Shown here: in pieces, positions 4,564-35,023 of the stretch
Numbering within the stretch: position 1 is the first letter of the stretch
Layout of the letters: each line of letters begins with the position of its first letter
Source of the DNA: Candidatus Limimorpha caballi
Lineage (GTDB): Bacteria; Bacteroidota; Bacteroidia; Bacteroidales; F082
Assembly (NCBI GenBank): GCA_018064605.1
Contig: JAGHUX010000005.1
Coordinates: 310,001 to 374,000 of the forward strand
Length of the DNA: 64,000 nucleotides
Reading direction: 5' to 3'
Translations under genes and position numbers: made by a program
The notes under the pieces: generated by a model
Database searches by the model: none
Seen by the model: only the letters and a program-made list of their open reading frames with translations
What the model was told of the DNA's origin: nothing

Positions 4564-5445
4564 ATGAACAATCCGAGCGAAAAGAAATACGGCAAACTCG
4601 TTTTCAGGGTGTCTGAAAACGACGAGTTGCTCCCATTTCTGATGAAGAAAATGAGCGGGATAAGCCGCACCAAGGCGAAGGGCATTCTGGCAAGCGGTGT
4701 CGTGACCGTTGACGGGCAATCGACGACACAGCACAACTTCCCGGTGAGGCCGGGCATGACGGTGACTATGGAACGCAACGGCGGCGGCAACATGCTAAAG
4801 AACCGCTGGGTGAGAATCGTTTACGAAGACAAATACCTCCTGGTGGTCGAAAAGCGGAACGGCATACTGAGCAACTCCATTCACCCAGGCGACGAGACGG
4901 TGCAGAAAATCCTGAACAGGTATCTGGAAAACAAGCATTTACGGTGTCATGCGCACACGATACACCGGTTGGACAGGGACACCTCCGGACTGATGCTGTT
5001 CGCGAAGAGCAAGGAGATCGCGCTGAAATTCGAGGACGACTGGAAAGGCACAGTTTACGACCGGCGCTATGTCGCGCTCGTGCACGGCGAGATGAGGAAA
5101 AGTGATGGGACTATAAGCTCGTGGCTCAAAGACGACGAGCACTTCTTGACGTACTCGTCGAAGACTGACAACGGCGGGAAATTCGCCGTGACGCGCTACA
5201 AGGTGCTGAAAGTGTGTGAAGGCTATTCGCTTGTGGAGCTGCGACTTGAGACCGGACGGAAGAACCAAATCCGCGTCCATCTCCAGGACATCGGCTATCC
5301 CGTCGTCGGCGACCCGAAATACGGCGACGGCGACAACAGCATCGGGCGGCTCGGACTGCACGCCTATAAACTATGCTTCACGCACCCTGTCAACGGCAAT
5401 GACATGAAATTCGAGACTCCATTCCCGAAAGGATTCGACATTTAA
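4564..5445 (+). CDS. RluA-family pseudouridine synthase with S4 domain
   Basis: The 293-residue protein starts with an S4 RNA-binding region (GISRTKAKGILASGVVTVDG, residues ~31-50). The RluA catalytic domain follows: the signature HRLDRDTSGLMLFAKS near residue 133 contains the catalytic Asp, and GRKNQIRVHLQDIGYPVVGD lies near 237. It converts specific uridines in rRNA (RluC/D-like) to pseudouridine; the exact position is not predictable. Its TAA stop shares the palindrome TTAA with the stop of the convergent Wzc gene, so the two genes overlap by four bases. Confidence 0.92.
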   Translation: MNNPSEKKYGKLVFRVSENDELLPFLMKKMSGISRTKAKGILASGVVTVDGQSTTQHNFPVRPGMTVTMERNGGGNMLKNRWVRIVYEDKYLLVVEKRNGILSNSIHPGDETVQKILNRYLENKHLRCHAHTIHRLDRDTSGLMLFAKSKEIALKFEDDWKGTVYDRRYVALVHGEMRKSDGTISSWLKDDEHFLTYSSKTDNGGKFAVTRYKVLKVCEGYSLVELRLETGRKNQIRVHLQDIGYPVVGDPKYGDGDNSIGRLGLHAYKLCFTHPVNGNDMKFETPFPKGFDI

Positions 5446-7847
5446 CTCTCTTTTTCGTAGCCATAACCATAACCATAGCCATAACCATAGCCGTAACCAT
5501 AACCGTAACCGTAGTTGTCACGACGTTTGTAGGTGGTGGCATTCACGACGACATATAGATTTGGCAGGCGTCTCTCGCTGTAAATCCTGTCAAGGTCAGG
5601 AAGCGCACGTCTGTCGATGTCGCCGGATTTGATGACGAACATCGTTGCGTCAGCGAGGCGCTTGATCACTTCGACATCGGCGACGGCGAATGCCGGGGTG
5701 CTGTCGAGAAGCACATAATCGTAATTATCCCTGAGTTTATCGACCATATCGTCCAGACGTCTTGAGGAGAGCAGTTCGGCGGGGTTTGGCGGGATCGGGC
5801 CGGAGCAGACCACGTCGAGGCCGTTGACAAATAGATCTCTCTGTATGATTTCGTCGACATCGTTCACGCGTCCGGTGAGCAGGCTCGTCACTCCGTTCTG
5901 GTTCAGCGCGTTCATCCGTCTCGCCATGGTGCCTTTCCTGATGTCGAGGTCAACGAGTGCGACCTTCACGCCCGACAGGGCGAGGCTTGTCGCCAGGTTC
6001 ATCGACACGAACGTCTTGCCGGAATCAGGGCTAAATGAGGTGAACAATATAACCTTTGCCCTGTTGTCGTTCGCGTCCTTCATATAGAAGAGGTTAGACC
6101 TAAGGATTCTGAACGCCTCTGTTATCTTGTCGAATTTATTATCGAGGACGACTATCTGCCTGCCGTCTTTCCCGTTATATTTCGGCAGTTCGCAAAGGAC
6201 AGGAACGTTGGTGGCCTGCCGTATCTCCTGCAAACAATACACCTTGGTGTCGAGCGTTCTCCTCAGGAAAAAGACCAGCATCGGAGTCGCGAGGCCGAGC
6301 AGCAAACCGATGAGCAACATCTTCTTCTCATTCGGGGCTACAGGGACGTTGTTGATCTTGGCACGGTCCACGACCCTGGCATTGCCTTCTATCTGAGGTT
6401 GGCTGAGCAGCAGCTCCTCCCGTTTTGTGAGGAGGTTGAGATATAAAGTCTCCTTGATTTTCTGGACACGCGCCACATTCATGAGGTACATCTGTGTCTC
6501 CGGCACGTCATTCATCGCCTTCGACGCCTCCTTCCCTTTGACGCTGAAGGCGGCGATTTTCTTGTTAATACCTGTGATATAAGCACTTATCAGCGTCTGT
6601 ATGCTTTTTTTATGTGCCTCCAGCGACTCCTTCAAAGAGCTCACGACGGGATTCGCCGACGCTCCAGAAGTCTCGTACCTCTCAAGTTTCAGCACGTCTT
6701 CGTTGAACTGGCTGATGACACCCTGCATTATGTCGTCATCGATTTCCGGGATTATCGGCAGCAGTTTGTTTTCAGTGTTGTTTTTCACATAGTTGAGCAG
6801 ATAAGCCGCCATCGACCTGCTCTCCTCCAGGCGGATCATCTCTTCCGACGACTCTATGCTGACTTGCAGGTAATTCTGTCCATAGTCGCTGACATCCAGC
6901 AGCAAATGTTCCTTCTTGAACAGTGCAAGCTCCGATTCTCTGTCACCGAGGTCAGTGTCAAGGGCGGAAAGCCGCTCGTTGATGAAGTCATACGTGTTTT
7001 TGATTATCTGCGTCTTGTCGTTGATGGCGGCCTCATTGTAAGCATCTATCAGGGTGTTGATGATGTCGGCCGCCCTGACCGGGGAGGTGTCTGTAATCTC
7101 CAGATTTATCAGGGTGTTCGCATCGCTGAGTCTCGAGATTTTAAGTTTTTGTCTGTATTGTTCAGCCACATCAAAGCTCGGGAGATGTCTTACTTTCACG
7201 GGGTCGTTTATGCAATCATCGCTGAACACAGGTGTCTTCGCGACGACGATTCTTCCGTCAGTGGTGTAAATCGTATCGCCGAAAGCCGCCACGACATCAC
7301 GCATGGCGGAGTTCGAGAAGTCGGAGACCAGCACCGTATCGTTGTCGAGCGGTGTCACCAGCATCTTGATCATCTGGTTCTCACGGGCGTCGGGGAATGA
7401 CACTTCGACAGGGCTGTTCCGGTACATGTCACTGTTCCTCCTGACGATTTTGGTCTGTCGCGTGTACGTGACGTTGAGGTTCAGACGTCTCACCACCTCC
7501 AGCATGGTCGTCTTTGACTCCATGATCAGCATTTCATCGTTCACGGAGCTTGCCATGATGTACCCGGACCTGTTGGTGAACTCCGACACGAACGTCATGT
7601 CCCTGACCATCCCTTTCGAAGATTTGTAATTGTCAGTCCTGAGCATAATCTGCGCACTGCTCTCATAAATCCTGTCCTGCCTCCTCGCGTAATAGACAGC
7701 TGCAAACGAGCCGATGAGGCCGAACAGCAGCAGCCAGTGCAGATTCCTCAGTATCACGAAAAGCACATCCTTGAAATGCAAGGAATTGTATGAATCATCA
7801 TCGAGAAACGATTCATTATCGTCAGTCCGACCTTTAATATCTGCCAT
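5442..7847 (-). CDS. Wzc-like polysaccharide co-polymerase with tyrosine autokinase domain
   Basis: The 801-residue protein has an N-terminal Wzz segment with a first membrane span (LHWLLLFGLIGSFAAVYYA, residues ~34-53), a long periplasmic coiled region and a second span (MLLIGLLLGLATPMLVFFL). The cytoplasmic BY-kinase domain has Walker A SPDSGKT near residue 606, Walker A' VALVDLDIRKG and Walker B YVLLDSTPAF. The C-terminus is a tyrosine cluster, (YG)9Y then EKES, the expected autophosphorylation site. BY-kinases of this type control chain length and export of capsule or exopolysaccharide together with the OPX protein encoded 9 bases upstream. The tail is an unusually regular repeat. Confidence 0.93.
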   Translation of the reverse strand: MADIKGRTDDNESFLDDDSYNSLHFKDVLFVILRNLHWLLLFGLIGSFAAVYYARRQDRIYESSAQIMLRTDNYKSSKGMVRDMTFVSEFTNRSGYIMASSVNDEMLIMESKTTMLEVVRRLNLNVTYTRQTKIVRRNSDMYRNSPVEVSFPDARENQMIKMLVTPLDNDTVLVSDFSNSAMRDVVAAFGDTIYTTDGRIVVAKTPVFSDDCINDPVKVRHLPSFDVAEQYRQKLKISRLSDANTLINLEITDTSPVRAADIINTLIDAYNEAAINDKTQIIKNTYDFINERLSALDTDLGDRESELALFKKEHLLLDVSDYGQNYLQVSIESSEEMIRLEESRSMAAYLLNYVKNNTENKLLPIIPEIDDDIMQGVISQFNEDVLKLERYETSGASANPVVSSLKESLEAHKKSIQTLISAYITGINKKIAAFSVKGKEASKAMNDVPETQMYLMNVARVQKIKETLYLNLLTKREELLLSQPQIEGNARVVDRAKINNVPVAPNEKKMLLIGLLLGLATPMLVFFLRRTLDTKVYCLQEIRQATNVPVLCELPKYNGKDGRQIVVLDNKFDKITEAFRILRSNLFYMKDANDNRAKVILFTSFSPDSGKTFVSMNLATSLALSGVKVALVDLDIRKGTMARRMNALNQNGVTSLLTGRVNDVDEIIQRDLFVNGLDVVCSGPIPPNPAELLSSRRLDDMVDKLRDNYDYVLLDSTPAFAVADVEVIKRLADATMFVIKSGDIDRRALPDLDRIYSERRLPNLYVVVNATTYKRRDNYGYGYGYGYGYGYGYGYGYEKES
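5457..5513 (-). repeat. Hexanucleotide repeat encoding the (YG)9Y tail of Wzc
   Basis: Nineteen codons alternate Tyr (TAT/TAC) and Gly (GGT/GGC), giving ten tyrosines. The unit is a degenerate 6-mer TAYGGY, so slippage by whole units would change the number of tyrosines without shifting the frame. Confidence 0.95.
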
Positions 7848-7856
7848 AAGAAAGAA

Positions 7857-8630
7857 TTATTTTAACAGTACAACAATCATCGTCACCACGGAGGTGATAG
7901 ATGACAGCACACCCATCCACGACATCCAATAGTTGACTTCGTTCATGTAATACCTTGATTTTATCGACTCAGTGATGATGAAATCGTTTTGCTGCAGCAG
8001 GAAGAACGGGTCGTTGAAGATCTCCGACGATCGCGGGTCCATGTAATGCAGCACCATCTTGCCGTCAACGTTGCGCAGCACGCCAATCTTGTCGCGGCGC
8101 GTGTAGCTGTTGATGCCTCCGTGCAAGGCCAGCGCCTCCAGGAACGTGCATCTCTCGTTGCTAATTGAGATGGAGCTGCCGCCTTCCGGACTCAAGAAGA
8201 ATATCTTGTAGTTGTTGAACCGCACATTGACGAACGGGTTGCTTTTACTCATGTATTCGCCGTCAACGAGGACCTTCTTGATGTATTCCTGAAGCTGGAG
8301 TCGCGTCATCCCGGCGACGTGAATCCGTCCGATGACAGGAAACTCTATGTCGCCGTTCACGTCAACGAGATAGCCTCTCCGCGCATACGAGCCGCTGTAG
8401 TCACGTTCACGCGACATGATGTTGAACGGCTCGGCCAGTTCCTTGTCGGAACACGAGACCCAGATGTCCAACTCATCGTACGGGCTTATCACTGCTTCAA
8501 ACCTGTTCTCAAGTTCAATCTGCGTCGTGTCGTTCATGTCTTGAAGGTAAAACACCTTCTTTGGCGTGACGCACGATGTGGCTGACATCAGCGCGAGGAT
8601 CACGGCGACCAACAAATTACATTTTCTCAT
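7857..8630 (-). CDS. Wza-like outer-membrane polysaccharide export (OPX) lipoprotein
   Basis: The 257-residue protein starts with a lipoprotein signal peptide (MRKCNLLVAVILALMSATSC, lipobox ending at Cys20). A Poly_export domain begins near residue 50 (ISPYDELDIWVS) and includes YLVDVNGDIEFPVIGRIHVAG. An SLBB-type region follows, and a hydrophobic C-terminal helix ends VVTMIVVLLK. It would form the export channel working with the Wzc-like kinase downstream. A promoter box precedes it, so the pair can be expressed apart from the glycosyltransferase genes. Confidence 0.9.
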   Translation of the reverse strand: MRKCNLLVAVILALMSATSCVTPKKVFYLQDMNDTTQIELENRFEAVISPYDELDIWVSCSDKELAEPFNIMSRERDYSGSYARRGYLVDVNGDIEFPVIGRIHVAGMTRLQLQEYIKKVLVDGEYMSKSNPFVNVRFNNYKIFFLSPEGGSSISISNERCTFLEALALHGGINSYTRRDKIGVLRNVDGKMVLHYMDPRSSEIFNDPFFLLQQNDFIITESIKSRYYMNEVNYWMSWMGVLSSITSVVTMIVVLLK

Positions 8631-8787: not shown

Positions 8788-9939
8788 CTACGACAGTATG
8801 TATTGCAGTATGTGTTCCGCGGCTTTTGCGTCGCCGAACACCTTTGGGTAGTCGATCTTCCGCGACAGCAGGTCGGCGGTGGCATCGACGATTTTCCGCG
8901 TGTCGGCGTCGGCTATCACCCCGGCGTTGGCCCGCACTATCTCCACCCACTCCGTCTCCGGGCGCATGATGACACACGGCTTCTCGAAGAAATACGCCTC
9001 TTTCTGCACGCCGCCGCTGTCGGTGATGACAACGGCCGAGTTCTTCTCCAGGACAATGATGTCGAAGAACGACGCCGGCGGGATGCAGACTATGTTTCTG
9101 CAACTCCCGAACTCTTCGTACACGCGCGGGTTGAGGTTGAGCGGGAGCAGTTTCGCCGTCCGCGGGTGCAACGGCAGCACGAGCTTGTACTGCGGCATCT
9201 CACGTGCGACCTCCACCAAGGCCCTGAAGATTGACGTCAGCCTCTCAGGGTTGTCGGTGTTGTTGTCGCGGTGTATGGTCACCAGGACATATTTGCCGGG
9301 GTGCAAGTCATGGCGTTGCAGTATGTCGGATTTCTTCTCGGCGATGCCGGCGAAATACATGCTGTTGTCGTACATCACGTCGCCGAGGTTGACGACGGAG
9401 TACGTCCTGCCGTCGGCGAAGCGAGCCCGAGAGTCGAAGAAGCCCTCTCGTCGGAGGTTCTCGACGGCCGTGTCGGTCGGGGCGAAGAGTATTGTAGAGA
9501 GCCGGTCGCAGACGATGCGGTTCATCTCCTCGGGCATCGACATGTTGAACGAGCGCAGGCCGGCCTCGATGTGGTACACCGGCACGTGGAGTTTGCCGGC
9601 GGCCACGGCGCCGGCGAGCGTCGAGTTGGTGTCGCCGTAGAGTATCACGCCGTCGAAATGCTCCGACAGCAGCACATCCTCGATGCCGGCGACCATCTTG
9701 GCGGTCTGCTCGCCGTGCCTCCCCGACCCCACGTTCAGGTTGTAATCCGGGTGCGGGATGCCGAGCTCGTCGAAGAACACCTGCGACATGTTGGCGTCGT
9801 AGTGCTGCCCCGTGTGCAGTATCCTCTCCTCGACGGACCCGGAGAAACGGCCTCTTATCGCGCGTGAAACGGCCGCCGCCTTGATGATCTGGGGCCTCGC
9901 CCCGATGATGGTCAATATTCGGATCATTTTATGTGACAT
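8788..9939 (-). CDS. Non-hydrolysing UDP-sugar 2-epimerase, WbpI/WlbD-like
   Basis: The 383-residue protein has the UDP-GlcNAc 2-epimerase fold signatures: GARPQIIKAAAVSRAI at the N-terminus, HTGQHYDANMSQVFFDELGI, YGDTNSTLAGAVAAGKL, HIEAGLRSFNMSMPEEMNRI, and TDSGGVQKEAYFF near residue 290. AGLRSFNM-MPEE resembles the WbpI/WlbD group, which epimerises UDP-2,3-diacetamido-2,3-dideoxyglucuronate; WecB-type enzymes usually read AGLRTGD at this place. A WlbA-like dehydrogenase of the same pathway lies at the other end of the locus (42832-43812). The base composition looks GC-rich like the core, unlike the cassette to its right. Plain ManNAc synthesis is the alternative. Confidence 0.85.
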   Translation of the reverse strand: MSHKMIRILTIIGARPQIIKAAAVSRAIRGRFSGSVEERILHTGQHYDANMSQVFFDELGIPHPDYNLNVGSGRHGEQTAKMVAGIEDVLLSEHFDGVILYGDTNSTLAGAVAAGKLHVPVYHIEAGLRSFNMSMPEEMNRIVCDRLSTILFAPTDTAVENLRREGFFDSRARFADGRTYSVVNLGDVMYDNSMYFAGIAEKKSDILQRHDLHPGKYVLVTIHRDNNTDNPERLTSIFRALVEVAREMPQYKLVLPLHPRTAKLLPLNLNPRVYEEFGSCRNIVCIPPASFFDIIVLEKNSAVVITDSGGVQKEAYFFEKPCVIMRPETEWVEIVRANAGVIADADTRKIVDATADLLSRKIDYPKVFGDAKAAEHILQYILS

Positions 9940-10268: not shown

Positions 10269-11069
10269 CTATTTCCAATATAGTTTTACCAAGCCGTTAT
10301 AGGCCTTCGCTACAATTCCATTTTTCCGTGCCGTCCGTTTCACATTATTTCTCAAAAGCTCACGGGCATGAAGCCAGACCCACTGTAACAAATTATCACT
10401 CCAAAGTGTATGAGCCAATATCATGGATTGTTTTGGGAAACTCTCGGACTTTATGCATTCAACAACCTGTTTTGTGGAATGGAAATGCAATCCATGGTTG
10501 TTTACCACGACATCACGAATTGCATATTTTCCGCCATCCCAAGCATAACCAGTATCTGTCATATAAAAAATTTCGTCGAAATTGAGGGACAAATAGGGTT
10601 CCCCTAGAATGCCATAATCCGACAAATTGTATCTCTCCCAAAGCAAACGGTTATCAAACTTTGAGGAGGTACTGCCATGCATACATACGACCTTAACCGG
10701 ATAATACTGACGGAAATATGTCAAATTTCTCTCAAATGACTCAATGGCCTTTTCAAAATCGCCTTCGGCCAACGATAAATCCTCGTAATGATAGCCAACA
10801 GCATGACCCATGCTGGCAATTTCCCGAATCACATCAGGCTTATCGCTTTGCTTCACAATCCGGAAGAAGTAAGTTGACACGACTCCCAAGTCGTACTCAA
10901 CCTTGGCCATTTTCAAGGCGTTTTCCGCCTTTTCATCGACATCATGCCGCATAATGACCACCTTGCCAGCTAATGGGCTTACAAGATAGTCTTCAAATTT
11001 TTGGAACTGATAGCCTGCGCCGACAAATGCTTGCAACAGTGCTTTATATGCTTTTATTGTATGATCCAT
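10269..11069 (-). CDS. Polysaccharide-deacetylase-like protein (NodB-type fold)
   Basis: The 266-residue protein carries VVIMRHDVDEKAENALKMA near residue 34, where RHDVD corresponds to the metal-binding Asp-Asp region of carbohydrate esterase family 4-like enzymes. GHAVGYHYEDLSLAEGDF near residue 88 supplies a further His, and MHGSTSSKFDN near 130 comes next. The family removes N-acetyl groups from sugars, or is a related hydrolase; no signal peptide is visible, so it should act in the cytoplasm. Its start overlaps the stop of the MBL-fold gene by one base, making it the last gene of the coupled lipid-type block. A free amine made here could be the site for the acyl group made by that block (inference). 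Confidence 0.8.
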   Translation of the reverse strand: MDHTIKAYKALLQAFVGAGYQFQKFEDYLVSPLAGKVVIMRHDVDEKAENALKMAKVEYDLGVVSTYFFRIVKQSDKPDVIREIASMGHAVGYHYEDLSLAEGDFEKAIESFERNLTYFRQYYPVKVVCMHGSTSSKFDNRLLWERYNLSDYGILGEPYLSLNFDEIFYMTDTGYAWDGGKYAIRDVVVNNHGLHFHSTKQVVECIKSESFPKQSMILAHTLWSDNLLQWVWLHARELLRNNVKRTARKNGIVAKAYNGLVKLYWK

Positions 11070-11698
11070 TAAAAATTCATGTTTACATTTGCTAATTCAA
11101 AAGGTTCTCCATGACCGGGATAGACCATTGCTGTTGGTGGGAATAGAACCTTCATTCGCATTATGCTTTCTTCAAACACCCGCTTATTACCCGTAGGTTT
11201 CGAAATATAGGGTTTCGTTTCCATCAGAACATCTCCGCCAATGATTGCGTTTTCCCCATTGATTTCAATACACACAGAACCTGCACTATGGCCTGGAGTA
11301 TCAAAAAACGAGAATTCAGCTCTACACAACGAAACTCGAGTACCTTCTTCTACAATTTGATCTGGTTCAGCAATTTGATACTCATAATCACATTGGTCAT
11401 AGTAAAGTTGAAAATAGCTACGGCTATTGACATTCATATATTTTGCGCAATTTCTTGAGCACAACAATTTTGCCCCAAATTCTTCGCGCAAATAATTGCA
11501 TCCCCAAGTATGGTCAACATGTTCGTGAGTAAGCAGAACAAACTTTGGCACAAGATTGTTCGCTTCCAAATAAGGCAATATATTCTCGCATTTTTCCGCT
11601 GCAGGATCAATGACGACACATTCTTTATTTTGTTCCTGATGAATCACATAACAGTTGGAATTCATCAGAGGATTAAGGAAACGCGCAATCCGAATCAT
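11069..11698 (-). CDS. MBL-fold metallo-hydrolase (glyoxalase II-like)
   Basis: The 209-residue protein has the full metallo-beta-lactamase motif set: LLTHEHVDHTWG (HxHxDH), FFDTPGHSAGSVC, IIGGDVLM and VYPGHGEPF, which together hold two zinc ions. Small members resembling hydroxyacylglutathione hydrolase cleave thioesters. Within a block encoding an acyl carrier protein, a role as acyl-thioesterase or editing hydrolase is plausible but not shown. It lies one base from the KAS III gene and overlaps the next gene by one base, so it is part of the same coupled unit. Confidence 0.88.
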   Translation of the reverse strand: MIRIARFLNPLMNSNCYVIHQEQNKECVVIDPAAEKCENILPYLEANNLVPKFVLLTHEHVDHTWGCNYLREEFGAKLLCSRNCAKYMNVNSRSYFQLYYDQCDYEYQIAEPDQIVEEGTRVSLCRAEFSFFDTPGHSAGSVCIEINGENAIIGGDVLMETKPYISKPTGNKRVFEESIMRMKVLFPPTAMVYPGHGEPFELANVNMNF

Positions 11699-11699
11699 T

Positions 11700-12701
11700 T
11701 CAGAATTTCATCATGACACCGCCCCATGAATAGCCTAAACCTTGAGCGACCGACAACACTTTCATGCCTTGTTGGATTGTGCCATCCTTCAAAGCCTCGC
11801 ACAAGGCAATCGGAATAGTAGAAGAAACCGTATTGCCAATATTTTCAAAGCAGCAATAGTATTTCTCTACCGGTATCTTCATTTTAACCCGCTGCAAATT
11901 AGCGATATACTTATTTGCCTGATGATATACATGCAAATCTATGTTTTCAATGGAAACGGAATTCTTCTTCAACACGTCTTCGATAAGCGTTGGAATCCTG
12001 TCTAAGGTGTAATTTAGGATTTCCGTTCCATTCATATACAAATAATCAGATGACTTAGGATTGCCGAAATCATCGAAAACCAAATCGTTTTTCGACTTGC
12101 GGCAACGTGCGCCACCCGTGCGGACAATCAGGTTTTTCGCCCCTTCCCCGTCGGCGCCGAAACTGAAATTCCCGATTTCAGCGATGCCTTGCGTACTGAC
12201 CAATGTGGCTGCAGCACCATCTCCAAAAATTGTCCGGTTGCCCTTATCCTTTGGATGCATGTATTTGGAATAGGTCTCCGCAGTCAGCAAAAGCACATTG
12301 CCTGCCATACCGCCAGCAATTAGGCCTTTGGCCATCGAAAGGCCAAAAATCCAACCCGAACAACCCAAATTCAAATCAACGGCACCAATCGTGTCGTTCA
12401 AACCAAGCCTGTTTTGAATAAGACATGCTGTAGTAGGCAAGACATAATCGGCACTTTGTGTGCAGAAAATCAGATAATCAATGCTTCCTTTATCAATTCC
12501 GTGTTCAGAAAACAGTTTTTCCGCTGCTGCGACTGCCATATCCGATGCCGTTTCATCCTCGGCAGTCACATGACGTTCAAGGATGCCCAATTTCTTTGCA
12601 ATCTTCTCCTCCGTCCATTCGGGGAAAATCTTTGCCAGTTCGGCATTCGTGATGACCTTTTCCGGCAAATAGTATGAAATCGCCTCAATGTAAACCTGCA
12701 T
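11700..12701 (-). CDS. 3-oxoacyl-ACP synthase III family (KAS III/FabH-like)
   Basis: The 333-residue protein is a thiolase-fold condensing enzyme with all three catalytic residues of KAS III: Cys114 in DLNLGCSGWIFGL, His260 in VYHQANKYI and Asn290 in FENIGNTVSS. KAS III condenses an acyl-CoA starter with malonyl-ACP to give a 3-oxoacyl-ACP. Gene order (FabD-like, ACP, SDR, KAS III) places it in a dedicated acyl-building pathway inside the glycan locus, not housekeeping fatty acid synthesis. It lies 7 bases after the SDR gene. Confidence 0.92.
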   Translation of the reverse strand: MQVYIEAISYYLPEKVITNAELAKIFPEWTEEKIAKKLGILERHVTAEDETASDMAVAAAEKLFSEHGIDKGSIDYLIFCTQSADYVLPTTACLIQNRLGLNDTIGAVDLNLGCSGWIFGLSMAKGLIAGGMAGNVLLLTAETYSKYMHPKDKGNRTIFGDGAAATLVSTQGIAEIGNFSFGADGEGAKNLIVRTGGARCRKSKNDLVFDDFGNPKSSDYLYMNGTEILNYTLDRIPTLIEDVLKKNSVSIENIDLHVYHQANKYIANLQRVKMKIPVEKYYCCFENIGNTVSSTIPIALCEALKDGTIQQGMKVLSVAQGLGYSWGGVMMKF

Positions 12702-12708
12702 AATTTAA

Positions 12709-13461
12709 TTACATTAGAGTATAGCCACCGTCAATTTTCAGTTCTGCGCCCGTCACCCACGACGAAGCCTCCGACAAAAGGTAAATCACGCCATGAGCCA
12801 CATCTTCAGGATTCCCGAAACGTTTCATCGGGAAAAGCTTTTTCAACTCACCCAAATCTTCCATAGAAGCATCTTGGGCCGACTTGAAAAGTTCCGTCAT
12901 CACCATGCCCGGATTCACGCAGTTCACGCGCACACCTTGCGCTGCCAAATCCAATGCAGCAGCCTTGGCAAAACCACTGATAGAACCTTTGGAAGCCGCA
13001 TAAAGCGATTCGCCATGACGCACGCAATCGTTACCAGAGACCGATGATGTGAAAACCAAAGAAGAAGGTTTATTGAGTTTCTTTTTCGCTACCAACTGCT
13101 TGGTCAACAGCACCGTAGAAAAAGCATTGGTCTGCATAATTTCAAGCAATTCCTCCTCCTTGATAAACTTTATCATATTGATTTTCGAGATGCCCGCATT
13201 ATGCGAAACACCATCCAACACCGGCAACTGCGAAACCATTGCATTCAGCGACTCCTTGTCAGCCAAATCAGCGACGATAGCGGTGTGATTTGGACCCTCA
13301 AGCATGGAAAGCGTCTCATTCAAACGGGTCTCATCACGGCCTGTTAAGACCAATTTCGCACCCATCTTCGAACATTCGACGGCAACGCACCGACCGATGC
13401 CCGATGATGCGCCCGTCACCAAAACGGTCTTCCCCTCAATGGAAAACGGATTGTACATCAA
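12709..13461 (-). CDS. SDR-family oxidoreductase, 3-oxoacyl-ACP reductase (FabG)-like
   Basis: The 250-residue protein is a classical short-chain dehydrogenase. TGASSGIG near residue 17 binds NAD(P), SHNAGI lies near 88, Ser precedes the catalytic pair in SLYAASKGS (YxxxK), and NCVNPGMVMTELF leads to the C-terminal IDGGYTLM. The TGRD after beta-2 resembles NADPH-preferring reductases. Sitting between the ACP and KAS III genes, it most likely reduces 3-oxoacyl-ACP to 3-hydroxyacyl-ACP. It overlaps the ACP gene by four bases (ATGA). A sugar-nucleotide substrate is less likely given the neighbours. Confidence 0.9.
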   Translation of the reverse strand: MMYNPFSIEGKTVLVTGASSGIGRCVAVECSKMGAKLVLTGRDETRLNETLSMLEGPNHTAIVADLADKESLNAMVSQLPVLDGVSHNAGISKINMIKFIKEEELLEIMQTNAFSTVLLTKQLVAKKKLNKPSSLVFTSSVSGNDCVRHGESLYAASKGSISGFAKAAALDLAAQGVRVNCVNPGMVMTELFKSAQDASMEDLGELKKLFPMKRFGNPEDVAHGVIYLLSEASSWVTGAELKIDGGYTLM

Positions 13462-13685
13462 AGTGCCTGAATGAAATTATACAACTCTTCAATGGTAGTG
13501 CAAGCCTTCAGGTTGGAGCCTGTGATTCTTTTTTCCATTTCGGCATCAACCATGGTAATGATTGACAATGCGGTCAAAGAACCCCATTCTTCCAGTTGTT
13601 TATAATCTGTTGAAGGGTTAAACTTACTCATTGGAGTGTCATCAAACTGTTCTGCAAAATTCTGCACAAATTCATCTAATGTCAT
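13458..13685 (-). CDS. Acyl carrier protein
   Basis: The small 75-residue acidic protein has the four-helix pattern of an acyl carrier protein. Ser36 in the segment EEWGSLTALSII is the expected 4'-phosphopantetheine site; the usual Asp-Ser-Leu is here Gly-Ser-Leu, with Trp before it, as in specialised carrier proteins. It overlaps both neighbours by four bases (malonyl transferase upstream, SDR downstream), so the three should be made in step. It is presumably the scaffold on which the acyl group of this locus is built. Confidence 0.88.
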   Translation of the reverse strand: MTLDEFVQNFAEQFDDTPMSKFNPSTDYKQLEEWGSLTALSIITMVDAEMEKRITGSNLKACTTIEELYNFIQAL

Positions 13686-14608
13686 AATGTATTGTATTTT
13701 AAATTTTTATAATCCTCTAAATCCCAAATGGAACCGACTTGACTCTCAGGGCACATCCTAGCCACGATTTTCTGTAGAGTGTCGTCAGTCCCTACTTCAT
13801 AATATGTATCTACACCATCCGAATGCATGTTTCTGACCATAGAAGTCCACAGCACTGGATGCGTGATATGATCAATCAAATTTGCTTTCAATTCATCAGG
13901 ATTGGTATGCGGTTTTCCATCAACACACTGATAGACTGGGCAACAAGGTTCGATGAACGTCGTTTTTTCAATGATAGCGCCCAACTTTTCTCTTGCCTCA
14001 GCCATATACGGAGAATGGAAAGATCCACCGATGCCTAAAAGTACCGCCTTCTTAGCGCCTTCTTCCTTGAACCTTTTCAAGGCAGTACGGATGCCCATTT
14101 TGCTACCCGTAATCACCACTTGACCAGGACCATTGTAATTGGCAAAATAAACCGGTTCGCCTGTTTCGTCCCAAATTTCGCGGATGCGACGTTCAATATA
14201 TTCATCGGACAAGCCAATCACAGCACCCATTGCCGTCGGCGTCTTATCGCACGCTTCCTGGCCATAAATAGCACGATGAAGGACAAGATTCAGTCCGTCC
14301 TCGAAAGAAAGGCATCCACTTACAACCAAGGCTGCGAATTCGCCCAAAGAATGACCAGCCACCACATCGGGGCGAACGGATTTCTGAGTCATGGCAGCAG
14401 CCACTTCATAAATAAACACCGCAGGCTGTGTGTTTTGCGTTTCCATCAGTTCCAATTCGAAGCCATGGAACATCACATTGGTAATACTGCGACCGAAACA
14501 AGCATCTGCACGCTCAAAAAAAACACGAGAGTCAGGATATCGCTCAAACAACTCCTTTCCCATGCCTTCCTTTTGGCAACCCTGTCCCGGAAATATAAAA
14601 GCCTTCAT
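13682..14608 (-). CDS. Malonyl-CoA:ACP transacylase (FabD-like)
   Basis: The 308-residue protein starts MKAFIFPGQGCQKEGMG. It has the nucleophile Ser87 in VAGHSLGEFAALV, an Arg in LHRAIYGQEA that would bind the malonyl carboxylate, and the catalytic His in SFHSPYMAEAREKL. It loads malonyl units from CoA onto an ACP. A second fabD-type gene inside a polysaccharide locus, coupled by ATGA overlaps to an ACP gene, argues for a private pathway. The core fatty-acid fabD would be expected elsewhere in the genome. Confidence 0.9.
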   Translation of the reverse strand: MKAFIFPGQGCQKEGMGKELFERYPDSRVFFERADACFGRSITNVMFHGFELELMETQNTQPAVFIYEVAAAMTQKSVRPDVVAGHSLGEFAALVVSGCLSFEDGLNLVLHRAIYGQEACDKTPTAMGAVIGLSDEYIERRIREIWDETGEPVYFANYNGPGQVVITGSKMGIRTALKRFKEEGAKKAVLLGIGGSFHSPYMAEAREKLGAIIEKTTFIEPCCPVYQCVDGKPHTNPDELKANLIDHITHPVLWTSMVRNMHSDGVDTYYEVGTDDTLQKIVARMCPESQVGSIWDLEDYKNLKYNTL

Positions 14609-15180
14609 TCCTTATTCTGTTTATCTTTCATCAATGTTGAGAAATTCACCTTCTTTTTGGCCGGGTTTCCTACAACAATCGTGCAAGAATCCACATCCTT
14701 TTCCACCACCGAACCTGCTGACACAATGGCATATTCCCCGACTTTAGCTCCACATAAGATGGTGCTTTTCACTCCAATCCAAGCTCCTTTTTGTATGACG
14801 ACAGGAGCGACTTTCGGTTCGATGACACCTTCAAAATGCGGATAAGGGTTCATGTGTGCAATAATCGTAACCTCACCAGCCAACGACACATCATCCTCGA
14901 TATAAACATATTCCGGATATGCGTTATCAATCACGCAATGCATGCCGAGATACACATTTTTGCCAATATGAACACCACGCCAACGGTTCATTTTCACACG
15001 CCAGCCGTTCAGCGGGCAAAAATACGACATTCTTGCCAATATGATGTTCTTTATTTTTCGGCAAGCAAAATGCATCGGACTCATATTGCGTCTCGCACCC
15101 GAACTCTTGATTGCTTCGCCCAATTTTTTATCACCGCCATAAAACGGAATGTTATGCGGTTCTAATAAGTCAAATTGCAT
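14605..15180 (-). CDS. Left-handed beta-helix (hexapeptide) acyltransferase
   Basis: The 191-residue protein has an N-terminal segment without repeats, then hexapeptide repeats (VHIGKNVYLGMHCVIDNA, VYIEDDVSLAGEVTIIAH, VVIQKGAWIGVKSTIL). The C-terminal part GEYAIVSAGSVVEKDV then GNPAKK is typical of sugar O- or N-acyltransferases; His in IIAHMNPYP may be catalytic. Placed directly upstream of and overlapping the fabD-like gene, it is the leading candidate to move the ACP-bound acyl group to a sugar (inference). An ordinary acetyl-CoA-dependent acetyltransferase is the alternative. Confidence 0.85.
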   Translation of the reverse strand: MQFDLLEPHNIPFYGGDKKLGEAIKSSGARRNMSPMHFACRKIKNIILARMSYFCPLNGWRVKMNRWRGVHIGKNVYLGMHCVIDNAYPEYVYIEDDVSLAGEVTIIAHMNPYPHFEGVIEPKVAPVVIQKGAWIGVKSTILCGAKVGEYAIVSAGSVVEKDVDSCTIVVGNPAKKKVNFSTLMKDKQNKE

Positions 15181-15183
15181 TTA

Positions 15184-16107
15184 TTATTTATGTTTTATTT
15201 CATACAAATCCCTACAAGTCAAGAAATTAAATTCCTTCTTTTGAAAGAACTCCAATTCCCGTTCAAAGATAGGCAAAGCCTTCTCTCCCAAGTTCTTCAC
15301 CTTTAGCTTGTGACGCAGCACATCGCCCATCAGATAAGAAAAATAATTGCTGGCACGACGCTGAATCTTGCCGCCTTCCCAATCTTCATCGATGAACTCA
15401 TTCGGATGCGTCAAAAAGACAAACTGACGGCCATTGCACAAAGTCTCCCAATACAGAAGCTGGCGCGTCATCCGATTCAGACTTGGAGCAATGCGCATAA
15501 ATGTTCCGATATACGGAAATCCCATAGCTGAAATCGGCACTTCCATTACTTCAGAATCGCCTTTTTTGAAAATATTCTCTTCGTTCACCAAATATGCTTT
15601 TCTCGGTGCCGTAATCCAATGGAGTTTTTTCAAGGCGCCAAAAGAGAAAAACATATCCAGACGCTGCGAAGCCACGGAACTATCAACCTTAAAACCAGCC
15701 TCTTTCATAATCTGCGGGAACTTCTCGTCCACCCTTGCTGCTGGCGCGCGGAATGAAATCACTTCGTCACCGATAATGTCTTCCAAAATCTGCTTGGATT
15801 GTCTTAAATGACTCAACTGCTCATCAGGTGTCAGCACATCGAAGGCCTGACTCACCTCATGGGTCAATCCATGAGAACCGACTTCATGACCTCTATCATA
15901 AGCCATCTTCACCACTTGAGGATACAATGCCGCAATATGCCCCGTGAAGAAAAAAGTGGCTTTCACGCCACACTTGTCATACAAATCGAGCAGGCGCGGC
16001 ATACCCTGTTTCAAGACATACTCGCCAGTCTTATCCCTCAACTTGTGGTTGAGAATTGATGTCGTTTCAACATCGTTAGTAATCAGGCAAAATTTGTCTT
16101 TCGACAT
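15184..16107 (-). CDS. Polysaccharide deacetylase (carbohydrate esterase 4 type)
   Basis: The 307-residue protein begins CLITNDVETTS, a variant of the first CE4 motif with metal-binding Asp. It continues KATFFFTGHIAALYP, then HEVGSHGLTHE, with the HxxxH pair of the metal site. RAPAARVDEKFPQ follows as motif 3, and FLTHPNEF provides the late His. No signal peptide is seen. It should remove acetyl (or other acyl) groups from an amino sugar. It is the second deacetylase-type gene of the block, 3 bases from the hexapeptide transferase gene. Confidence 0.88.
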   Translation of the reverse strand: MSKDKFCLITNDVETTSILNHKLRDKTGEYVLKQGMPRLLDLYDKCGVKATFFFTGHIAALYPQVVKMAYDRGHEVGSHGLTHEVSQAFDVLTPDEQLSHLRQSKQILEDIIGDEVISFRAPAARVDEKFPQIMKEAGFKVDSSVASQRLDMFFSFGALKKLHWITAPRKAYLVNEENIFKKGDSEVMEVPISAMGFPYIGTFMRIAPSLNRMTRQLLYWETLCNGRQFVFLTHPNEFIDEDWEGGKIQRRASNYFSYLMGDVLRHKLKVKNLGEKALPIFERELEFFQKKEFNFLTCRDLYEIKHK

Positions 16108-16123
16108 ACTTGAAAAAAGGTTG

Positions 16124-17146
16124 TTACAGATTCTCTAAGATGGTCGTTATTTCTTTGTTGATGTCGCCGACAGCAGCAAAATAAGATTCTTTCTTCTGCA
16201 TCCATTCTGACTTGTGTGAGAATGAAGAAAAGTCCCGCACCGACGTTAAAACTTCATCAAACGATGCAATGTTTCGGAGCAGACCATACTTGTGCTCCAG
16301 CATCTTGAAATTCGACATGTCGTGTTCGCCGACAAAAGAATTTGATCGTATCGCCGGCGTCCCGAGCAAGGCGGCTTCCGTGGCCATCGTCTGAGAATCG
16401 CCCAAATACAAATCGGCAAAAGCCAAAACACTGTGAATGGCAGAAGCCGGCGTAGGCAACTTGTACTTTTTCAATTCTTCCGGCAGCTCTTTTTCTGAAG
16501 AAATATAAACCGTCATATAAGGTTCCACCGCTTCCACGAGTTTCATCTTCTCCTCCAAAGTAAAGCCGCTGTTGTTCACATCGTGATTGGCAAACCAGCC
16601 CACGAAGCGGAAAACCGCGTATGGCTTTTTCAGACCATTTCCCGGAATCACTTTTTCGTCTGGCTGAAAAACGGACGGAGCCAGATAGCAATCTTCGAAA
16701 ACACCTTTCACACGGATATGTTTTTCACCGTAATCCAATGTGAAGTTTTCAGGCGTTACGACCTTGGTACAGCGAGGCACCACATGCTTATTGGTCAAGG
16801 CAACGACTTCCGAATCGGGAAAAATCACCGACTTTGCCTTATATTTTTTTGCCATCAAGACCCCGAAGAGCGAAGCTTTTGAAACGACGACATCCGGACG
16901 GTACCTTTTCACGATTTTCGAATAGCATCTTAACAAAGAGAAAGAACCAAGAACCTTTTCTATCATCTTTTTCTTATGCAGGCCAAAGATTTCATACGGC
17001 ACGCCTTCTTCCTCTAAGACCTTCAGCAGCACATCTTTATCCCTAGCCAAGACCAAAACATCATGGCCGTCATTTTTCAGCATCTGCATCACATACTTGA
17101 ACTGGTAGTAATGCTTCGGATGGTTCAATTCAAATATATACTTCAT
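16124..17146 (-). CDS. DUF354 family GT-B-like glycosyltransferase
   Basis: The 340-residue protein begins [17 protein letters not shown]. It shows the DUF354 pattern: [39 protein letters not shown], and [26 protein letters not shown] near residue 250, a nucleotide-sugar-binding type segment. DUF354 proteins have a GT-B or epimerase-like fold and are common in archaeal and bacterial polysaccharide loci; no precise reaction is known to me. It overlaps the following acetyltransferase gene by four bases, so it belongs to the coupled block. Confidence 0.8.
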
Positions 17147-17634
17147 CTTTCTTTGTTTTCAAATGTCTTGATAACTTTAGCCGGCGCGCCCACAGCCACA
17201 CAATAAGGCGGAATATCGCGGGTAACGACCGAACCGGCGCCGATGATTGCGCCTTCGCCTATCGTAACGCCAGGCATGATGATGGAGCCAATACCGATAT
17301 GCGCGCCATCCTTTATGATGACTTTGCCTTCCTTAAATGGGCAATGCATGGCATACATCCCAGGTTTGTAATCTGTCAAATCGCGTTGATGGCACAGAAT
17401 CATCACGCCTGATGTAATAGCCACTCCTTTACCTATTTCTATCAAATCAGGATTACGGTCATCCAGAATCGCTCCACGAGCGACATGCGTCTGCTTGCCT
17501 ATTTTCACGCCCCTCAATTTATGCAAAAAAACCGTAACCTGATACGGGAACGTGAACATTGTCAAAATCGACAATGAATGGGTCCATATCCCTTTGATAA
17601 TGGAAAATAGACTACGATGTTTAACTATAGACAT
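17143..17634 (-). CDS. Hexapeptide-repeat O-acetyltransferase
   Basis: From the ATG at 17634 the product is 163 residues ([10 protein letters not shown]); a TTG 45 bases upstream would add 15 residues that do not resemble the family. Hexapeptide turns run from [17 protein letters not shown] through [15 protein letters not shown]. The typical end is [26 protein letters not shown], as in serine or maltose-type O-acetyltransferases. His in ILCHQRD is the likely base. It is the first gene of the tightly coupled block and probably acetylates a sugar hydroxyl; transfer of the longer ACP-bound acyl group is possible. Confidence 0.85.
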
Positions 17635-18049: not shown

Positions 18050-19351
18050 CTATTCTTCATCAACGACAACACGACGTTTATTATTTTTCATCAATGGAAT
18101 AGAAGGAACAATCTCCAAACGGACAGACTTCTGCAGTTGTTCAGACCAATATTTTACAATATGATTTTTGACCGTATCATCGAAATCGTTATTCACTTCT
18201 AAATTAAACAAAATCGACCCATCTTTCTTTTTCACCACTTGATATGCGGTGACACCACTAACTTCATGTAAAAAAAATCGGGAAAAATTGTGAACAGTAT
18301 ACCTTATTCCACCTGAACACACTAAGGAATCACACTCTCGCCCCATAATACGCGTTATTTTCCCATTACGAACTTCTACCAAATCATGAGCATCGTATCT
18401 AATAAAAGGTTGAGCAAAATTCCATAGGTCAGTTGAAATAACACGGCCAACGCCATCAGTAATCACATTATCATTTTCATCCAACACTTCAATTATACCA
18501 AAAGCATCAGAGACCTTATATCCATCATGAGAAACTGTTTCGTATGTATTTGGGGTACCCTCACAACTATATGAATCAATTACATCACAACAAAACGCTT
18601 TTTCAATTAATTCTCTATATGCAGTCGACAAAGTAGATCCTGTAGTCATAATATGCTTTGGACAAAAAACAAAACCAGGATTATCAAGTCGACACTGAGC
18701 CAATAAATATATCGGAATAGGATACGAGCGAATAATTGAAGGCTTTTCTTCCTCAACAAGGCGAAGAATTGCCTTCAAGTTATCATCGCTGATTGAATAA
18801 AATGGGACAAAAATGCAATTGTTCATCCTATCCTGCAACTTCTTTAACACCCCTTGTCTTTCACCATTAGCAATTTTAATATACTTATCGCCCATACGAT
18901 AACCAGCCTGATACCACGTACTTAACTTTGCCGCAGTATTTAACCCATCTGATTCTTTAGATGTGAAATATGAGAAAGGCTCTCCTGTAGAACCACTTGA
19001 ACAATGCGAAACCCGTTTTTTAACAGGATAGCTATTAGACACGAATCTATCGCCACCTTCTCTTCTCATAATTGATTTGTCAACAATCGGAAGCTTCCTC
19101 AAATCATTCTTTGTTTGAATATCGTCAACCGAAAGATTCAAAGATTTAAACAAATCGTTATAGTATGGAACACTTTCAACAGCATGCCGAATCAGCATGC
19201 GCAATCGTTTATTTTGGAAATCAATCACTTGCTCTTGAGACCAACCATCCGTTTCCTTTAAAAACCTAAAAGACCTGGCAACATTTTGACCTGCAATCAA
19301 ATCACTAATAGGCAAAAAAACATTCTCTGATATATAATTACGAAATGACAT
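18050..19351 (-). CDS. PaaK/CapK-like adenylate-forming enzyme
   Basis: From MSFRNYISENVF the product is 433 residues; an ATG 21 bases upstream is the alternative start. HCSSGSTGEPFSYFTSK near residue 125 is the Ser/Gly/Thr-rich AMP-binding loop of the phenylacetate-CoA ligase family, followed by GSTLSTAYRELIE and an acidic C-terminal domain. Members in capsule loci are called CapK-like and their reaction is not settled. Adenylation of a carboxylic acid and transfer to CoA, an ACP or a sugar would fit the acyl-building genes downstream (inference). Its composition is strongly AT-rich. Confidence 0.82.
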   Translation of the reverse strand: MSFRNYISENVFLPISDLIAGQNVARSFRFLKETDGWSQEQVIDFQNKRLRMLIRHAVESVPYYNDLFKSLNLSVDDIQTKNDLRKLPIVDKSIMRREGGDRFVSNSYPVKKRVSHCSSGSTGEPFSYFTSKESDGLNTAAKLSTWYQAGYRMGDKYIKIANGERQGVLKKLQDRMNNCIFVPFYSISDDNLKAILRLVEEEKPSIIRSYPIPIYLLAQCRLDNPGFVFCPKHIMTTGSTLSTAYRELIEKAFCCDVIDSYSCEGTPNTYETVSHDGYKVSDAFGIIEVLDENDNVITDGVGRVISTDLWNFAQPFIRYDAHDLVEVRNGKITRIMGRECDSLVCSGGIRYTVHNFSRFFLHEVSGVTAYQVVKKKDGSILFNLEVNNDFDDTVKNHIVKYWSEQLQKSVRLEIVPSIPLMKNNKRRVVVDEE

Positions 19352-19489
19352 ACATCCTTTATTTATTAACATTTCAACATTTCTCAGCCAATATCACATT
19401 TTACCACTTTTTTGACATCAATCAAAACCAATATACGGCGTCCCATCATTCACCATAATATCGGCATTATTTTTATCTTCAACTGACAA

Positions 19490-34069: not shown

Positions 34070-35023
34070 CTACTCCTCGTCAACCCCACCAATGAGAATG
34101 CTGTCGGGATTCTTGTCGAGGAAGTTACTCTGGGAGACTACCGAATGGCCGATTTCCTTTTCGGCGGCCTTGCGGGCAACACCTGCCACAGAACCGCCCC
34201 TTTGGGCCACCTTGACGTTCTCGCGCATCCCTTCCGGCTTTTCCTTCTGGGACACCTCGGTCGTGACGCGCTCACCGAGCATCGTGAAAATCAGCTCCAG
34301 ATCCGTCATATGGTCGCGGAGGTTAACCCCTTCGGGCTTTTCCTCCTTCGCACCTCGGCAATCGAAGCAAGCTTCATTGCTCTCGGTTTGGCGTCGGTTC
34401 TGGCTCTTCTTCGTCAAACCCTTGATTTCCTCATGTTCCGAGGGAGTCATGCCGAAAGTCGCCTTCGCAATCTCTGCCGTCAGAATGGCGTAATCCCGTT
34501 GCTCAGTGATTCCACGCTCCTTCCACTCATTGGTCAGGTTCTGACGTATTGCAATCCCGCGAAGCCGCTTGTCAATCCAATCTTTCGGATAACCCTTCGC
34601 CTCGTAGATGGCCTTCATCCGTTCCTGAGCCAGTTCGGGATTCTCAATCTCCTGAATACGCTCATAGCCCACCCGCGCGAGCCACTGCTTGAACGGCTCT
34701 GCCTTGGGCGATGGAATGCTCTGGACAATGCGGAAAAGTTGCTCGGCATCGGCCACATCGGTGAGGTACCTTTTCCCATCCTTTGGCGAAACCAATTTCA
34801 GTTGGTTACAATTTGCAACCAACTCATTTCCCTCCTGCACAATCCTGAATTTCAGAACCTTCCAATAATTCTTTGCACGGTCATAATTTGGCTGGTCGGT
34901 CAAAACGCCACACACATCCACTATGGAGAAATACCATTTCTCCCGCTCACTGTCCCAAGCCGTCCGTACCTTCATGCCCTCAAACAGCTGGATTTTTTCT
35001 CTCATTGTCATGATATTTTCCAT
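34070..35023 (-). CDS. Bro-N domain / DinD-like protein
   Basis: The 317-residue protein has an N-terminal Bro-type DNA-binding domain: RTAWDSEREKWYFSIVDVCG, ANCNQLKLVSPKDGKRYLTD and AEPFKQWLARVGYERIQEIE. The conserved DinD-like C-part holds YPKDWIDKRLRGIAIRQNLT, LTAEIAKATFGM and NLRDHMTDLELIFTMLGE. Such proteins occur in phages and as DNA-damage-inducible accessory genes. An extra stretch of about 25 residues, rich in charge (NRRQTESNEACFDC and the following residues), seems inserted just before NLRDHMTD. The gene has its own -7 box and no evident part in glycan synthesis; it looks like a mobile passenger. Confidence 0.85.
   Translation of the reverse strand: MENIMTMREKIQLFEGMKVRTAWDSEREKWYFSIVDVCGVLTDQPNYDRAKNYWKVLKFRIVQEGNELVANCNQLKLVSPKDGKRYLTDVADAEQLFRIVQSIPSPKAEPFKQWLARVGYERIQEIENPELAQERMKAIYEAKGYPKDWIDKRLRGIAIRQNLTNEWKERGITEQRDYAILTAEIAKATFGMTPSEHEEIKGLTKKSQNRRQTESNEACFDCRGAKEEKPEGVNLRDHMTDLELIFTMLGERVTTEVSQKEKPEGMRENVKVAQRGGSVAGVARKAAEKEIGHSVVSQSNFLDKNPDSILIGGVDEE

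What the first reader, a model, noticed from the sequence alone, without database searches (positions are those of the whole stretch)
10269..17634. Private fatty-acid/polyketide-like pathway inside a glycan locus, predicted to make a beta-hydroxyacyl sugar substituent
Seen: acyltransferase (17143), DUF354 glycosyltransferase, CE4 deacetylase, acyltransferase (14605), FabD-like, ACP (Ser36), SDR ketoreductase, KAS III (Cys114/His260/Asn290), MBL hydrolase and a second deacetylase. Most junctions are 1-4-base overlaps or gaps of 1-16 bases, so the block acts as one unit. Known: KAS III plus malonyl-ACP plus a ketoreductase gives 3-hydroxyacyl-ACP, and short hydroxyacyl groups on amino sugars occur in some bacterial glycans. 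Inferred: with no dehydratase or enoyl reductase the product stops at 3-hydroxyacyl (or 3-oxoacyl). A deacetylase frees an amine, a hexapeptide transferase places the acyl group, and the PaaK-like ligase (18050) may activate a starter acid. I do not know this exact combination from a described system.
Basis: partly seen in the sequence, partly recalled or inferred. Interest (0 to 1): 0.8.

Follow-up and report, generated by a model that had tools for sequence, protein, structure and literature searches.

The report
Private hydroxyacyl supply for sugar coat
A gut/rumen-type bacterium carries, inside its surface-sugar genes, a private miniature fatty-acid pathway that most likely makes a short hydroxy-acid and hangs it on an amino sugar; the kind of pathway is already known from two other bacteria, but this version has extra parts of its own.

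Summary
KAS III and FabD-like differ from housekeeping relatives, and five sister genomes carry the block beside a separate housekeeping-type FabH. The core (hexapeptide acyltransferase, FabD, ACP, ketoreductase, KAS III, with a CE4 deacetylase alongside) recurs at 70-87% identity in seven other Bacteroidales records, followed by Wza/Wzc-type export genes in six. Related KAS III loci swap in other parts of the same logic (PIG-L deacetylase plus LpxD-like acyltransferase; aminotransferase plus PglD-like acyltransferase). Likely product: a 3-hydroxybutyryl (or close 3-hydroxyacyl) amide on an amino sugar of an exported glycan; nothing has been measured. It is not a new kind: the Pseudomonas syringae viosamine island (mutant evidence) and Flavobacterium psychrophilum wfpC-G work alike. 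New here: a dedicated malonyl-transferase lineage and amine exposure by deacetylation. Corrections: MBL, the 17143 acyltransferase and the PaaK-like ligase are outside the conserved core, and this KAS III is the only one found in the assembly.

The parts
14605..15180 (-). hexapeptide (left-handed beta-helix) acyltransferase, proposed hydroxyacyl-ACP:sugar acyltransferase; directly before FabD in 7 of 7 sister blocks
13682..14608 (-). private FabD-like malonyl-CoA:ACP transacylase (GHSLGE, conserved Arg, FH pair)
13458..13685 (-). private acyl carrier protein, Ser36 attachment site
12709..13461 (-). SDR (3-oxoacyl-ACP reductase role inferred from context)
11700..12701 (-). KAS III, Cys114/His260/Asn290, apart from housekeeping FabH in the tree
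15184..16107 (-). CE4-type polysaccharide deacetylase, proposed to expose the amine
10269..11069 (-). RHDVD protein, weakly CE4-like, probable hydrolase; wide family
11069..11698 (-). metallo-beta-lactamase-fold hydrolase, accessory; possible thioesterase (guess)
16124..17146 (-). DUF354 glycosyltransferase-like protein
17143..17634 (-). second hexapeptide transferase, first gene of the packed unit; variable between sister loci
8788..9939 (-). non-hydrolysing UDP-GlcNAc 2-epimerase (WecB), neighbour
7857..8630 (-). polysaccharide export protein (Wza type); a relative follows the block in 6 of 7 sister loci
5442..7847 (-). Wzc-type chain-length/tyrosine kinase protein, follows the export gene
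18050..19372 (-). PaaK-like adenylate-forming ligase, upstream, not part of the conserved core

Best explanation
The unit is a private type-II fatty-acid-like supply line for decorating an exported polysaccharide. The FabD-like protein loads malonyl onto the private ACP; KAS III condenses it with a short acyl-CoA, most simply acetyl-CoA; the SDR reduces the 3-oxo group. The result is a 3-hydroxyacyl-ACP, most simply 3-hydroxybutyryl-ACP. The CE4 deacetylase removes the acetyl from an N-acetyl amino sugar on a lipid-linked or nucleotide-linked intermediate, and the 14605 hexapeptide transferase puts the hydroxyacyl group on the freed amine. The glycan then leaves by the Wza/Wzc-type machinery. 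Shown by computation: gene identities, catalytic residues, separation of KAS III and FabD from housekeeping copies, conservation as a unit. Inferred: substrates, chain length, reaction order, the SDR's substrate, amide rather than ester linkage. The MBL protein may hydrolyse stalled thioesters; that is a guess.
For: 14605-FabD-ACP-SDR-KAS III keep their order in 7 of 7 sister loci, each with the CE4 gene directly after KAS III (in the window CE4 lies before 14605); 6 of 7 continue into export genes, the seventh (L013) is a 4.9-kb contig; in L019 the KAS III frame is split. 35 housekeeping-type FabH rows lie on one side of the KAS III tree (SH-aLRT 99), and the 11 usable KAS III rows from loci with a dedicated FabD lie together (SH-aLRT 100). 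All 5 sister genomes with a close block searched also hold a housekeeping-type FabH (281-284 bits). The window FabD is 48% identical to the housekeeping copy against 80-83% to the 7 FabDs of the sister blocks. Parts replaced with the logic kept: LpxD-like acyltransferase plus PIG-L de-N-acetylase around the same ACP-SDR-KAS III core in L018, L082, L084, L087; PglD-like plus aminotransferase-like plus FabD in L015. A deacetylase together with a hexapeptide transferase in 14 of 52 loci. L151 holds DUF354, a 14605-like transferase, KAS III, SDR and ACP together. Described precedents with known product.
Against: Nothing measured. The 14605 enzyme's nearest named families are largely O-acetyltransferases, so an ester or plain acetyl transfer is possible. 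Deacetylase, DUF354 and 14605-like genes occur together without KAS III within about 1.5 kb in other Bacteroidales, so the deacetylase need not serve the acyl route. Of 33 loci with ACP and SDR, 19 showed no recognised deacetylase in range, 16 neither deacetylase nor DegT aminotransferase, and 5 had an MBOAT; most genes there were left unidentified. The residue at the starter-pocket position is Leu88, not Phe, so the starter may be longer than acetyl (meaning of the position recalled). The SDR scores far below the 3-oxoacyl-ACP reductase cut-offs. L118's second KAS III lies outside the FabD-linked group.
Confidence: 0.6

Rival explanations
1. Same acyl supply, but the hydroxyacyl group is put on a sugar hydroxyl as an ester; the deacetylases act independently on the polymer.
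For: Nearest named relatives of the 14605 enzyme include WcaF and WbbJ O-acetyltransferases; related KAS III loci hold MBOAT O-acyltransferases (7 of 52); deacetylase genes occur without nearby KAS III.
Against: The same core is paired with LpxD-like or PglD-like acyltransferases and PIG-L or aminotransferase-like genes in other loci, and both described precedents are amides.
Confidence: 0.2
2. The product is longer or different (may overlap with the best explanation): KAS III uses another starter (branched, aromatic or a PaaK-activated acid) or works as a small polyketide synthase, giving for instance a 3,5-dihydroxyacyl or 3-oxoacyl group.
For: Leu88 in place of Phe; F. psychrophilum carries 3,5-dihydroxyhexanoyl and has two synthase genes; PaaK-like genes nearby in the window and in L014, L019.
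Against: The window block has one KAS III and one SDR; the PaaK-like gene is outside the packed unit and its sister-locus relatives are 27-29% identical.
Confidence: 0.2
3. The KAS III (with its partners) is really the housekeeping fatty-acid initiator of this genome and only lies in the glycan locus.
For: No other KAS III found in this assembly, rated 100% complete; no fabH/fabF2 pair within the 19.5 kb read around its best fabG match.
Against: KAS III lies apart from housekeeping FabH; 5 of 5 sister genomes with the block have a separate housekeeping-type FabH; fabD, fabF with ACP and a fabG exist elsewhere in the genome.
Confidence: 0.06

Closest known systems
Viosamine island of Pseudomonas syringae (vioA, vioM, vioT, vioS, vioB, vioR, acp; PMC3927599, passages seen)
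   Same: KAS III, 3-oxoacyl-ACP reductase, dedicated ACP and a dedicated acyltransferase in one glycan island; product is an N-(3-hydroxy-1-oxobutyl) amino sugar; the vioR mutant's flagellin lacks the modified viosamine.
   Different: Amine made by an aminotransferase (vioA), not exposed by a deacetylase; no FabD among the seven genes; flagellin glycan, not an exported polysaccharide.
O-polysaccharide R-group genes wfpC-G of Flavobacterium psychrophilum (PMC6519341, passages seen)
   Same: Bacteroidota glycan locus with ACP, 3-ketoacyl-ACP synthases, ketoreductase and a PglD-like acyltransferase; NMR shows a 3,5-dihydroxyhexanoyl amide. The gene roles are that paper's predictions.
   Different: Two synthases; pglE/pglF route to the amino sugar; PglD-like acyltransferase; no FabD or CE4 named in the passages seen.
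Rhizobial nod genes nodABC + nodFEG (recalled; search listing only)
   Same: Same logic: glycosyltransferase, deacetylase frees an amine, dedicated ACP and synthase supply the acyl group, acyltransferase attaches it.
   Different: NodA is an unrelated acyltransferase and NodE a KAS II-type enzyme, with long unsaturated chains (all recalled).
LpxC/LpxD of lipid A (recalled)
   Same: Deacetylate, then N-acylate from a 3-hydroxyacyl-ACP with a hexapeptide enzyme.
   Different: Uses housekeeping ACP and long chains; LpxC is not CE4.

Membership tests
Glycan 3-hydroxyacyl cassette of the viosamine-island / wfp kind | KAS III with Cys-His-Asn triad, distinct from housekeeping FabH | tested here: met
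Glycan 3-hydroxyacyl cassette of the viosamine-island / wfp kind | dedicated ACP and SDR in the same unit | tested here: met
   SDR substrate not tested
Glycan 3-hydroxyacyl cassette of the viosamine-island / wfp kind | dedicated sugar acyltransferase in the unit | tested here: met
   acyl specificity not tested
Glycan 3-hydroxyacyl cassette of the viosamine-island / wfp kind | hydroxyacyl group in the glycan | not testable with these tools
   needs chemistry
Glycan 3-hydroxyacyl cassette of the viosamine-island / wfp kind | amino sugar supplied by an aminotransferase in the unit (a feature of both described examples; I do not hold it to be defining) | tested here: not met
   none of the ten proteins matched an aminotransferase model; a CE4 deacetylase is there instead
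Housekeeping FAS II | groups with housekeeping FabH/FabD | tested here: not met
   KAS III tree; FabD by identity only, no tree
Nod factor genes | NodA acyltransferase homologue | tested here: not met
   no NodA family among the Pfam matches of the ten proteins (E <= 0.001; the NCBIfam lists are capped at 25 for four proteins); NodB model matched far below cut-off (36.2 of 240 bits)
XrtA-linked exopolysaccharide system | deacetylase of model TIGR03006 | tested here: not met
   91.3 of 276.2 bits; XrtA itself not sought

The most novel reading that the evidence does not exclude
A self-contained 'deacetylate and re-acylate' line for an exported bacterial polysaccharide: N-acetyl groups are cut off and replaced by a short hydroxy-acid from a metabolically insulated supply with its own malonyl loader, reinventing the logic of Nod factors and lipid A from unrelated parts, in a lineage of Bacteroidales where parts are freely swapped (CE4 or PIG-L; WcaF-like, LpxD-like or PglD-like).
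Probability: 0.35. Interest if true: 0.6.

Novelty: new variant of a known kind. Interest (0 to 1): 0.42.

Why it matters
Surface glycans of gut and rumen Bacteroidales govern contact with host, phage and diet (general knowledge), and their non-sugar decorations are poorly known. If the prediction is right, a genome signature (this KAS III lineage + small ACP + SDR, with or without FabD) marks polysaccharides with hydroxyacyl groups: 36 of 393 sampled genomes of the order, the window's own included, carry a KAS III at E <= 1e-90 to this one, and 33 of 52 KAS III loci examined also carry the ACP and SDR. The private FabD lineage points to insulation of the route from membrane lipid synthesis.

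Tried and rejected
Housekeeping FAS copy: rejected by tree and by sister genomes. PaaK-like ligase as starter activator: outside the packed unit and poorly conserved. MBL as core enzyme: not seen in 7 of 7 sister blocks. Settling the missing fabH by synteny: a LytTR flanking gene found only a 28% match; the best fabG match (72%) lies inside a 247-kb contig without fabH/fabF2 in the 19.5 kb read, so the absence is not a contig edge at fabG, but a gap elsewhere is not excluded. Mapping a catalytic residue of the hexapeptide enzyme onto 3mqg was tried from the printed alignment and dropped as unconvincing. Promoter and terminator scans gave numbers near the shuffled controls (30 against 21.8 +/- 5.3; 11 against 11.3 +/- 3.8) and were not used. 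Literature: 9 searches of the open PMC set; among the rows listed (capped, for example 15 of 123 and 12 of 691) I saw no title or abstract with this exact set (FabD + CE4 + KAS III + ACP in a Bacteroidales glycan locus). Subscription papers are not in that library, and five papers were looked at by passages only.

Rows dropped: L051 (fragment) and L019 (KAS III reading frame split into two ORFs) were not put in the trees; L140 was left out of the second tree (long branch). Gene maps used homology to window proteins, two KAS II-type proteins and ten extra query proteins only, so unlabelled genes are unidentified, not absent functions.
Full report
What is there. The window is bases 310001-374000 of contig 5 of a 2.76-Mb assembly whose nearest named matches are uncultured Bacteroidales. 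Ten minus-strand genes from 17634 down to 10269 are packed with gaps of -4 to 16 bases; 415 bases separate them from the PaaK-like gene upstream and 329 from the WecB-like epimerase downstream. In order of transcription: hexapeptide transferase (17143), DUF354, CE4 deacetylase, hexapeptide transferase (14605), FabD-like, ACP, SDR, KAS III, MBL hydrolase, RHDVD protein. Then follow a UDP-GlcNAc 2-epimerase (285.9 bits, cut-off 210.15), a Wza-type export protein and a Wzc-type protein. Further upstream the locus has many glycosyltransferases and an ABC exporter pair.

Is it housekeeping? No. The genome has a second FabD (335.6 bits against 260.1 for the window copy), two KAS I/II-type synthases each with an ACP nearby and a FabG-like protein on contig 37 that is 72% identical to a sister genome's. 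In a tree of 79 KAS III rows, the 35 rows I labelled housekeeping (the best FabH match of 35 other genomes) lie on one side of a branch (SH-aLRT 99, quick method, no bootstrap) and the other 44, the window included, on the other side. Those 44 were picked by similarity to the window KAS III; for many the setting is not established. In 60 same-genus genomes, the window's included, 6 hold a close 14605 acyltransferase (85-100% identity); one more has a 41% relative, and 0 of 40 genomes of other genera pass E 1e-40. In one search the five other genomes of these six had both a block-type KAS III (247-257 bits) and a housekeeping-type FabH (281-284 bits; none passes the 292.1-bit cut-off). The window's own assembly is the exception: it has no other KAS III. 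Among the 23 same-genus relatives, 19 show a housekeeping-type FabH (281 bits or more) and 4 do not, those 4 being 62-89% complete. I cannot say whether the absence is real.

What is conserved. Seven sister loci (L009-L014, L019) keep 14605-FabD-ACP-SDR-KAS III in this order with CE4 next; six go on to the RHDVD protein, Wza and Wzc genes, and the seventh is a 4.9-kb contig. Identities to the window are 70-87% for these six proteins and 61-65% for the RHDVD protein. Against them the window has CE4 upstream of 14605 and an MBL gene after KAS III. Of the six loci with upstream sequence, two (L014, L019) have the 17143 transferase and a DUF354 protein at 64-72%; the other four have a DUF354 protein at 30-34% and no 17143 relative there. 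So the heart of the unit is acyl supply + 14605 + CE4.

Swapped parts. KAS III at E <= 1e-90 was found in 36 of 393 sampled genomes of the order. I read the gene order around 52 KAS III loci: 14, 35 and 3 further same-genus loci; several are contig ends. On the KAS III strand, ACP within four genes before or three after in 38 of 52, SDR in 36, both in 33; within six before or five after, FabD in 11, MBOAT in 7, DegT-like aminotransferase in 6, the RHDVD protein in 6, MBL in 1. Four loci (L018, L082, L084, L087) put the same ACP-SDR-KAS III core beside an LpxD-like hexapeptide transferase and a PIG-L de-N-acetylase (Pfam for L082 and in part L087, the others by similarity). L015 has a PglD-like transferase, aminotransferase-like genes and FabD. 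L118 has FabD, a glyoxalase-like protein, two KAS III, an MBL 45% identical to the window's and an aminotransferase. L097 and L113, from other families, keep DUF354, CE4, a 14605-like transferase and KAS III with no ACP in the stretch held, which ends soon after. L151, a same-genus locus, holds DUF354, a 14605-like transferase, KAS III, SDR and ACP, with a distant RHDVD protein. That unrelated deacetylases and acyltransferases fill the same places is the best argument that the amine-exposing and amine-acylating roles are real. Two of the CE4 matches counted are weak (L083 81 bits, L103 19 bits), as is L017's transferase match (42 bits). The dedicated FabD goes with one KAS III lineage: of 12 FabD loci, the window included, 11 had a usable KAS III row, and these 11 lie together (support 100); L118's second KAS III does not belong to them.

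Against. The deacetylase-DUF354-RHDVD set also exists without KAS III close by: the RHDVD family is in 67 of 393 genomes, and among 19 such loci with about 1.5 kb of flank or less, DUF354 was seen in 7, CE4 in 3, a 14605-like transferase in 3, KAS III in none. So the acyl supply may have been added to an older deacetylase module, and the deacetylases may have other substrates. The 14605 enzyme is nearest by name to O-acetyltransferases, though its best solved relative is an LPS-biosynthesis acetyltransferase (3mqg, 55.9 bits). The SDR is not named a 3-oxoacyl-ACP reductase by any cut-off shown.

Chemistry. FabD-like keeps GHSLGE, the conserved Arg and the FH pair as in the housekeeping copy, which fits malonyl (meaning recalled). 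KAS III keeps its triad. At the position of the starter-limiting Phe of short-chain FabH (recalled; aligned through 4nhd) the window has Leu, as do 37 of 47 similar rows; housekeeping rows have Thr (24 of 35), Phe (10) or Ser (1). No dehydratase family was matched in the unit; a MaoC-like dehydratase does lie upstream in sister locus L009. Hence 3-hydroxyacyl, most simply 3-hydroxybutyryl, is expected.

Known relatives. In P. syringae the viosamine island (vioS KAS III 338 aa, vioR reductase 253 aa, acp 69 aa, vioB acyltransferase 213 aa) makes N-(3-hydroxy-1-oxobutyl)-viosamine, and the vioR mutant's flagellin lacks the modified viosamine (PMC3927599, passages). In F. psychrophilum wfpC-G are predicted to make and transfer the NMR-assigned 3,5-dihydroxyhexanoyl group (PMC6519341, passages). 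N-3-hydroxybutanoyl amino sugars occur in other capsules and O-antigens: three such sugars are assigned to 12, 13 and 22 of 237 Acinetobacter K loci (PMC9676051, passages), and others in Hafnia (PMC4869667, passages); the term 'acyl carrier' has no occurrence in the main text of these two papers or of PMC3726653. The window therefore is a variant of a known kind, with private FabD and deacetylase-based amine exposure as its own features.

Noticed in passing
window genome, contigs 37, 45, 33 (L169, L162, L163): No housekeeping fabH or its usual fabF partner found in an assembly rated 100% complete; the only KAS III is the glycan one. Real loss or assembly gap is open.
   Followed up: partly
L005 and L163 (window genome contig 33): A second KAS II-like gene with an ACP, a gene that by eye looks like a membrane acyltransferase, and an SDR lie together, like another specialised acyl pathway.
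   Followed up: no
window 32697-33959 and 40531-41403: ABC-2 export permease and Wzt/TagH-like ATPase in the same locus as Wza/Wzc-type genes: two export routes side by side.
   Followed up: no
window 34070-35023: BRO-N domain protein inside the glycan locus, between an ABC ATPase gene and a glycosyltransferase gene.
   Followed up: no
window 38234-40504: Polysaccharide pyruvyl transferase next to an FrhB/FdhB-type iron-sulphur protein; role of the pair unclear.
   Followed up: no
L009:2235-3262: A second 14605-like transferase (43% identity) directly followed by a MaoC-like dehydratase, hinting at a second acyl modification there.
   Followed up: partly
L019:9944-10980: KAS III reading frame is split into two ORFs in this assembly; sequencing error or a broken gene.
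   Followed up: no
L171-L189: The RHDVD protein family of 10269, with almost no Pfam match, is in 67 of 393 genomes of the order; 7 of 19 loci looked at have a DUF354 gene close by.
   Followed up: partly
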